Assembly: GCA_035292885.1 (NCBI GenBank)
Contig: DATDPG010000173.1
Location: 1-36,256, forward strand
Direction of reading: 5' to 3'
From: Bdellovibrionota bacterium
GTDB lineage: Bacteria > Bdellovibrionota_G > JALEGL01 > DATDPG01
DNA length: 36,256 nt
Both the position numbers and the translations under genes were made by a program. This document shows, one piece after another, positions 34,034-36,245 of the stretch (the stretch's first letter is position 1; every line of letters begins with the position of its first letter). The notes beneath the pieces were generated by a model. That model saw only the letters and a program-made list of their open reading frames with translations, did not search any database and was not told the origin of the DNA.

Positions 34034-34363
34034 ATGTCCGAAGAAGACAAAATCGTCTGTTCCAAGTGTGAAAAGATCATTCGCTACGAACGACCGCTCT
34101 TTTGTCCGTATTGCGGTGCAAAGCTCGAACCGGTCGAGGACCTGCTCAATTCGGACGACCGGAGGGAAGTGTATCGATGGTCTCACGCAGCGCCGCTTCT
34201 CATGAATCTATTCTTCGGATGGTTGTTACTTCTTCTGCCCGCCAGCTGGATCTGGGGAAAAGCGGGGATTTTCTGGCTCTCAATCCTGTTCACGGGGATC
34301 CTTATCGTCGCATTCGTGGGATTTCTGGTGTTCAGCGGAATGGGCGCAAAGAAGCGGTCTTGA
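34034..34363 (+). CDS. Small zinc-ribbon protein with two membrane helices
   Basis: This 109-aa protein has four cysteines in two CxxC knuckles (Cys9, Cys12, Cys24, Cys27), typical of a small zinc ribbon, followed by an acidic linker. Two hydrophobic helices follow (about 55-74 and 80-103) and a basic end GAKKRS. Zinc-ribbon membrane proteins of this kind are widespread and uncharacterised. It is divergent from the EAL gene with 29 nt between listed starts. Its last 32 nt overlap the 3' end of the convergent exported-protein gene. Confidence 0.75.
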   Translation: MSEEDKIVCSKCEKIIRYERPLFCPYCGAKLEPVEDLLNSDDRREVYRWSHAAPLLMNLFFGWLLLLLPASWIWGKAGIFWLSILFTGILIVAFVGFLVFSGMGAKKRS

Positions 34364-35287: not shown

Positions 35288-35767
35288 ATGAGTACCCTTG
35301 AGCCGGCATGGCGGCGATGCGCTTCGTGCAAGAAACGGATTGGCTTCGACCAGCGCTACTGGGCATGCAGCGTATCGACTTGCAATCGATCCCGCACCGG
35401 CGTTGTTTTCTGCAGTGTAACGTGCTGGGATCAGCATGTGCCGATTCTCCGGCATCGAGACGCGTATGCGGAAGAGGCACGATCACCGACGAAGAAAGAA
35501 TGGGAGAATATGTTGAACGAACAAAAAACGACCGATGAAACCACCGACGGCGAGACAAGCGTGGAATCAGGAACCCCACAACAGGAGCAGGAAGTTCTCG
35601 TCGTCGCGTCCAAAGTGAAGGCGTACATTCGCCGGCAAGCGGACATGAACACTTCCGCGGATGTCATGAAATCGCTTTCCGGAAAGATCCGAAAGCTTTG
35701 CGACGATGCGATAGGCCGCGCGAAAGAATCCGGCCGAAAAACGGTCCTCGACCGGGACATTTTGTAG
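35288..35767 (+). CDS. Zinc-finger/histone-fold fusion protein (Bd0055-like histone domain)
   Basis: This 159-aa protein has two parts joined by an acidic, disordered linker (about 68-100). Residues 8-60 carry Cys11, Cys14, Cys27, Cys32, Cys42, Cys46, His50 and His56, spaced like a HIT/MYND-type cross-brace zinc finger. Residues 102-159 (VLVVASKVKAYI, MNTSADVMKSL, AKESGRKTVLDRDIL) match the bacterial histone fold of Bdellovibrio Bd0055 closely as I recall it, including the GRKTV(x)xRDI loop-helix shared with archaeal histones. The third helix is cut short compared with Bd0055. DNA binding or chromatin organisation is likely; the zinc finger may bring a partner. It is a single-gene unit, convergent with the helicase fragment. 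Confidence 0.8.
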   Translation: MSTLEPAWRRCASCKKRIGFDQRYWACSVSTCNRSRTGVVFCSVTCWDQHVPILRHRDAYAEEARSPTKKEWENMLNEQKTTDETTDGETSVESGTPQQEQEVLVVASKVKAYIRRQADMNTSADVMKSLSGKIRKLCDDAIGRAKESGRKTVLDRDIL

Positions 35768-35837: not shown

Positions 35838-36245
35838 TTATTGGGGCGGGGGCTGAAGGTACCCGAGCGATTCGCCGGAACGTGAAGAATCTTCGAGACG
35901 ACGATGGAATTCGACGACGGAAGGGTCGACGCGGATCGACGATTCATCCCAACCGGTAAGTGTCAGGCCGTCTCCGCTTCGTAGCCGGCTTAACGCCACA
36001 TAAGCCTGGCCCGGCTCCCAAAGGCGGCGGAGATCGCAGACCATGCTGTCGAGTGTCGCTCCCTGGGCTTTGTGAATCGTCGTAGCGTAAGCCAGTGTGA
36101 GAGGAAAGTTAGTGGCACTCTTGTCCAAAACAGCTTGAAGATTTTTGAATCGGAAGGCCGATAAAACCTCGCGCCGGCGAAGAAACTCATTGCATACACC
36201 AACTCCTCGTCGCCGTTGCGTCCTTCTTTTCGTCTGGAGAATTTC
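35838..36245 (-). CDS. C-terminal fragment of a Pif1/RecD-like superfamily 1B helicase
   Basis: The frame carries the last helicase motifs of this family: [20 protein letters not shown] (motif V-like), [18 protein letters not shown] (motif VI) and the closing [16 protein letters not shown]. Residues before it ([21 protein letters not shown]) also read as protein. The frame is closed by a stop at 36246-36248, only eight bases from the window edge, although the Walker A and other motifs must lie further upstream. So either a frameshift lies near 36180-36245 or the gene is a broken remnant. A start at TTG 36128 would give a useless 96-aa piece. I treat it as a partial gene. Confidence 0.7.

What the first reader, a model, noticed from the sequence alone, without database searches (positions are those of the whole stretch)
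35288..35767. Zinc finger fused to a bacterial histone fold
The C-terminal 58 residues match Bd0055-type bacterial histones (MNTSAD and GRKTVxxRDI segments) while the N-terminal half is a cysteine-rich HIT/MYND-like finger, separated by an acidic linker. A chromatin protein with its own recruitment domain would be notable in bacteria, and the shortened third helix may change dimerisation.
Basis: partly seen in the sequence, partly recalled or inferred. Interest (0 to 1): 0.65.

Follow-up and report, generated by a model that had tools for sequence, protein, structure and literature searches.

The report
A ZZ-finger bacterial histone, already described
This gene encodes a small bacterial histone with a zinc finger on its front end. 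It belongs to a published family (ZZ histones) common in Bdellovibrio-like bacteria, so it is a new member of a known kind, and the role of its finger is still untested.

Summary
Window 35288-35767 (+) encodes 159 aa: an eight-ligand zinc finger (C11 C14 C27 C32 C42 C46 H50 H56), an acidic linker, and a Bd0055/HBb-type histone fold (residues 102-158; PDB sequence match E 4e-10; AlphaFold model over HBb at 0.6 Å). Eight of the ten main DNA-contacting residues of HBb are identical and one is conservative.

The fusion is not new. Schwab et al. 2024 named this architecture 'ZZ histone', and Hocher et al. 2023 reported the B. bacteriovorus copy (Bd3044). I found about 140 full-length copies in 369 genomes of one phylum. 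The zinc-ligand spacing equals the published one at seven of eight positions. The short third helix is a family trait; HBb still dimerises with it.

Three smaller points look new. (1) The window genome lies outside the phylum that holds the ~140 copies. (2) Some relatives have lost the histone fold and keep the finger with a conserved ILRR-like tail. (3) In the subgroup nearest the window protein, the linker holds an in-frame ATG behind a Shine-Dalgarno-like stretch, so one gene might also make a free histone; controls for this were negative or underpowered.

The parts
35288..35767 (+). Gene for the 159-aa ZZ histone (stop codon included)
   Evidence: ORF list; full-length relatives
35309..35455 (+). 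Zinc finger, residues 8-56; ligands C11 C14 C27 C32 C42 C46 H50 H56
   Evidence: All eight ligands invariant in 60 sequences; same spacing as the published ZZ histone D0LYE7 at 7 of 8 positions; model pLDDT about 88-97 in residues 11-60
35486..35590 (+). Acidic linker, residues 67-101 (pI 4.1, charge -6); lacks the RRI[IV]-type motif of most family members
   Evidence: residues 81-100 low confidence in the model
35591..35761 (+). Histone fold, residues 102-158, bacterial-dimer (HBb) type
   Evidence: PDB sequence match E 4e-10; Foldseek to HBb TM 0.91 by target, rmsd 0.6
35502..35515 (+). Possible internal start: GGGAG at 35502-35506, then ATG 35510-35512 (3-nt spacer) or TTG 35513-35515 (6-nt spacer); would make a free histone
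   Evidence: Sequence; Shine-Dalgarno strength no better than synonymous shuffles, p 0.69

Best explanation
This is a ZZ histone, a member of the alpha3 histone family. Its C-terminal fold should pair with a second copy and bind the DNA backbone in the minor groove without sequence specificity, bending DNA as HBb does. Each dimer would then hold out two zinc fingers on flexible linkers. Most likely the fingers bind a protein partner, as eukaryotic ZZ domains do, making this a low-abundance adaptor on DNA and not a bulk packaging histone. Shown by computation: both domains, the zinc ligands, conserved DNA-contact and dimer-interface residues. Inferred: dimerisation, DNA bending, zinc binding, partner binding, low abundance.
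For: Sequence and structure match to HBb. HBb DNA-contact residues map to S108, K109, K111, N121, S123, K151, T152 and R156 (identical), K16 to R115 (conservative) and T8 to A107 (changed); the RD clamp R150/D157 and interface residues V110, L130, I134, L137, I158 are kept. Eight invariant zinc ligands at the published ZZ-histone positions. The best finger match among solved structures is the p62 ZZ domain, although weak (5yph, rank 41, E 0.29). Low expression and protein level of the B. bacteriovorus ZZ histone are reported in PMC11390915.
Against: No partner is known, and Schwab et al. report that the histone-tail pocket of eukaryotic ZZ domains is not conserved in the bacterial ones. No gene neighbour is conserved across the sampled loci. 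The finger is basic (pI 9.15), so it could touch DNA itself. No dimer was modelled here.
Confidence: 0.72

Rival explanations
1. Two products from one gene: the full-length protein, plus a free bacterial-dimer histone started at the internal ATG/TTG in the linker. The gene would replace a separate Bd0055-like histone gene.
For: In 10 relatives (G402, G407, G410, G411, G413, G442, G443, G449, G454, G370) the linker has an in-frame ATG 9-21 aa before the histone, behind GGAG/AGGG-like or at least purine-rich bases; most fused genes outside this subgroup lack both. The peptide after that ATG (MTEGNTEKE, MDNQEKTEGTGGE) resembles N-termini of stand-alone histones in the same phylum (MENENQQTEGGGE, MENTTTEEPKE). 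All 13 fused genes with such a site (window included) are in genomes without a stand-alone Bd0055-like hit, against 19 of 49 others (Fisher p 6e-5). The window protein is nearest to this subgroup.
Against: Shine-Dalgarno strength is no better than in synonymous-codon shuffles for any single gene. Only one independent contrast exists on supported branches, so the Fisher value is inflated by kinship. The window spacers are 3 nt (ATG) or 6 nt to a TTG, weaker than in the relatives. Drafts may be missing genes. The cut-offs were set after seeing the data.
Confidence: 0.3
2. The finger is a DNA-binding or dimer-stabilising element, not a partner reader: a basic zinc module that adds DNA contacts.
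For: The finger has pI 9.15 and net charge +4.6. Some relatives pair the finger with a basic tail and no histone fold.
Against: ZZ-type domains with known ligands bind proteins (PMC11390915). Finger-only proteins keep the finger without the histone, which fits an independent partner.
Confidence: 0.2
3. Mis-binned contig: the gene belongs to a Bdellovibrionota contaminant and not to the window's own lineage.
For: Full-length copies abound in the G096 phylum, and no other of the five held genomes of the window's phylum has one. The genome is a draft in 214 contigs.
Against: The EAL-domain gene 1.3 kb upstream on the same contig is closest to genomes of the window's own phylum (58% in G002, 51% in G004, against 38% in G098).
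Confidence: 0.1

Closest known systems
ZZ histones (Schwab et al. 2024, PMC11390915; D0LYE7 of Haliangium ochraceum; the ZZ histone of B. bacteriovorus, which I take to be Bd3044)
   Same: N-terminal finger with C4 and C2H2 sites, flexible linker, C-terminal bacterial-dimer-type histone fold with short alpha3; ligand positions coincide with offset 9 except the paper's C53 (C55 would be expected from this alignment).
   Different: The linker lacks the RRI[IV]-type motif seen in most members sampled here and has a possible internal start; the genome lies outside the phylum holding the ~140 copies.
Bacterial dimer histone HBb / Bd0055
   Same: 30 of 58 residues identical; DNA-contact and dimer-interface residues nearly all kept.
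   Different: HBb has no finger and no linker and is highly abundant (PMC11390915).
Eukaryotic ZZ domains (p62, HERC2, p300, ZZZ3)
   Same: Two-zinc ZZ-type fold by weak structural match.
   Different: No Pfam ZZ match at sequence level among the families listed; ligand-pocket residues reported not conserved (PMC11390915); not fused to a histone fold in those proteins (own knowledge).

Membership tests
ZZ histone (alpha3 family) | N-terminal zinc finger with eight ligands (C4 plus C2H2) | tested here: met
   C11 C14 C27 C32 C42 C46 H50 H56, invariant in 60 sequences; positions agree with the published ones apart from one cysteine
ZZ histone (alpha3 family) | C-terminal bacterial-dimer-like histone fold | tested here: met
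ZZ histone (alpha3 family) | Truncated alpha3 of 3-4 residues | tested here: met
   Model alpha3 is residues 155-157
ZZ histone (alpha3 family) | Finger structurally similar to eukaryotic ZZ domains | tested here: inconclusive
   The p62 ZZ domain is the only clear finger match in the top 50, but E 0.29; no Pfam ZZ match among the families listed
Bacterial dimer histone (HBb type) | RKTxxxD motif and conserved alpha1 lysines | tested here: met
   R150 K151 T152 / D157; K109, K111
Bacterial dimer histone (HBb type) | Forms a dimer that bends DNA | not testable with these tools
   Only a monomer was modelled
HIT or MYND zinc finger | Match to Pfam zf-HIT or zf-MYND | tested here: not met
   Window protein: no such match at E up to 10; zf-MYND in 2 of 60 relatives at E 0.018, zf-HIT not among the 25 families listed

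The most novel reading that the evidence does not exclude
A two-in-one histone gene: a subgroup of ZZ histones, probably including this one, uses an internal start in the linker to make both a finger-bearing histone and a free histone from one mRNA, while sister lineages have the same parts as a finger-only gene (ILRR tail) and a separate histone gene.
Probability: 0.27. Interest if true: 0.5.

Novelty: new member of a known kind. Interest (0 to 1): 0.2.

Why it matters
As found, it adds one member, outside the main phylum, to a family already catalogued. What the finger does is open. Finger-only relatives allow finger and histone to be tested apart, and the internal-start subgroup gives a cheap test of whether bacteria tune free against finger-bearing histone from one gene.

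Tried and rejected
Synonymous-shuffle test for the internal Shine-Dalgarno: not significant for any gene. Separate origin of the subgroup's histone domain: the quick tree suggested kinship with stand-alone histones, but a tree holding all fused histones together was better (p-AU 0.79 and 0.87), so rejected. Conserved gene neighbours: none. The first fold, with four sequences, was poor (pLDDT 43) and was replaced by one with 60 (87.8). Plasmid and phage collections: no match. Viral structure library: best matches were to histone folds, none at E below 0.001. Two window genes used as binning controls had no homologues in the panel, and the transketolase fragment was ambiguous.

Full report
WHAT IS THERE. 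The ORF is at 35288-35767 on the + strand, 159 aa. By sequence, residues 101-158 match the crystal structures of the Bdellovibrio histone HBb/Bd0055 (8cmp E 4.2e-10, 8fvx E 5.5e-10) and, more weakly, the Leptospira histone HLp (9qt0) and the archaeal HTkC (9f2c). Pfam and NCBIfam see the histone only below their cut-offs. The N-terminal half has eight potential zinc ligands, C11 C14 C27 C32 C42 C46 H50 H56.

RELATIVES. A scan of genome contigs gave three full-length relatives in named Bdellovibrionales/Bacteriovoracaceae drafts, 46-52% identical over both domains. A profile search of 369 genomes of their phylum matched 332, about 140 of them with full-length copies. In 60 aligned sequences all eight ligands are invariant, together with W8, Y24, R150, T152 and D157. 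No plasmid or phage record matched.

STRUCTURE. With 60 sequences AlphaFold2 gave mean pLDDT 87.8: a finger (residues 1-65), a helix 69-83, a disordered stretch about 84-100, then alpha1 107-118, alpha2 124-147 and alpha3 155-157. Foldseek put HBb-DNA complexes first (9ezz, TM 0.91 by target, rmsd 0.6 over 58 columns); the best finger match was the p62 ZZ domain (5yph), weak at E 0.29.

DNA BINDING. Hu et al. list the HBb residues with most DNA contacts (PMC11317129). Mapped with an offset of 99, eight of ten are identical in the window protein, one is K to R (R115) and one is changed (T8 to A107); the RD clamp R150/D157 and the dimer-interface residues V110, L130, I134, L137, I158 are kept. 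The short third helix is the normal state of alpha3 histones; HBb dimerises with it.

ALREADY KNOWN. Schwab et al. 2024 (PMC11390915) define ZZ histones by exactly this architecture. Their ligands in D0LYE7 (C20 C23 C36 C41 C51 C53 H59 H65) minus nine give the window's ligands except C53, where the alignment predicts C55. Hocher et al. 2023 (PMC10627809) report the longer histone Bd3044 in 37% of Bdellovibrionota; that Bd3044 is the ZZ histone of B. bacteriovorus is my inference from the two papers together. The finding is therefore a new member of a known kind.

WHERE IT SITS. The window genome's own phylum has five held genomes; only this one has a full-length copy, and two others (G001, G004) have stand-alone bacterial-dimer-like histones. 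The window genome's second histone (contig C155) is only distantly related (39% identity, 24 bits). The EAL-domain gene just upstream is closest to genomes of the window's phylum, which argues against a mis-binned contig. No neighbour is conserved across the sampled loci.

INTERNAL START. A subgroup of fused genes has an in-frame ATG in the linker behind purine-rich, mostly Shine-Dalgarno-like bases, and the peptide from that ATG resembles the N-termini of stand-alone histones. All 13 fused genes with such a site (window included) come from genomes with no stand-alone Bd0055-like hit, against 19 of 49 others (presence taken by me as a hit of at least about 35 bits). Controls weaken this: synonymous shuffles explain the Shine-Dalgarno strength, only one independent contrast exists, trees do not separate the histone domains, and in the window the spacer is poor. 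It is a hypothesis, not a result.

FINGER-ONLY RELATIVES. Nine genomes (G423, G424, G430, G433, G434, G436, G446, G447, G450) carry the finger without a histone fold, ending in a conserved [IL][LI]R[RK]-type tail; each has a stand-alone histone elsewhere. The finger therefore has a use apart from the fused histone.

VERDICT. Real, ordinary for its family, mechanism plausible but unproven. The most interesting leads are the finger-only proteins and the possible internal start.

Noticed in passing
L056-L064 and L109-L114 (G423, G424, G430, G433, G434, G436, G446, G447, G450): Finger-only relatives without a histone fold, with a basic linker and a conserved C-terminal tail of the type VILRR; the stand-alone histone lies elsewhere in each genome.
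   Followed up: partly
Linkers of most ZZ histones, e.g. L126, L115, L087: A short [KR]RI[IV] motif recurs in otherwise unconserved linkers; it is absent from the window protein and most of the internal-start subgroup.
   Followed up: no
L108 / L206 (G454): The fused gene has a TAA stop inside the histone part; pseudogene or assembly error.
   Followed up: no
window 34034-34363 (+): Small protein with a zinc-ribbon-like N-terminus and a hydrophobic C-terminal half, near the histone gene; Pfam zinc-ribbon matches are all below cut-off.
   Followed up: no
window 35838-36128 (-): Piece of a helicase-like protein (UvrD_C_2, E 0.005, below cut-off) at the contig end.
   Followed up: no
literature: PMC11318664: This review says deletion of Bd3044 is lethal; the passages I read in the primary paper (PMC10627809) report deletion attempts for bd0055 only.
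   Followed up: partly
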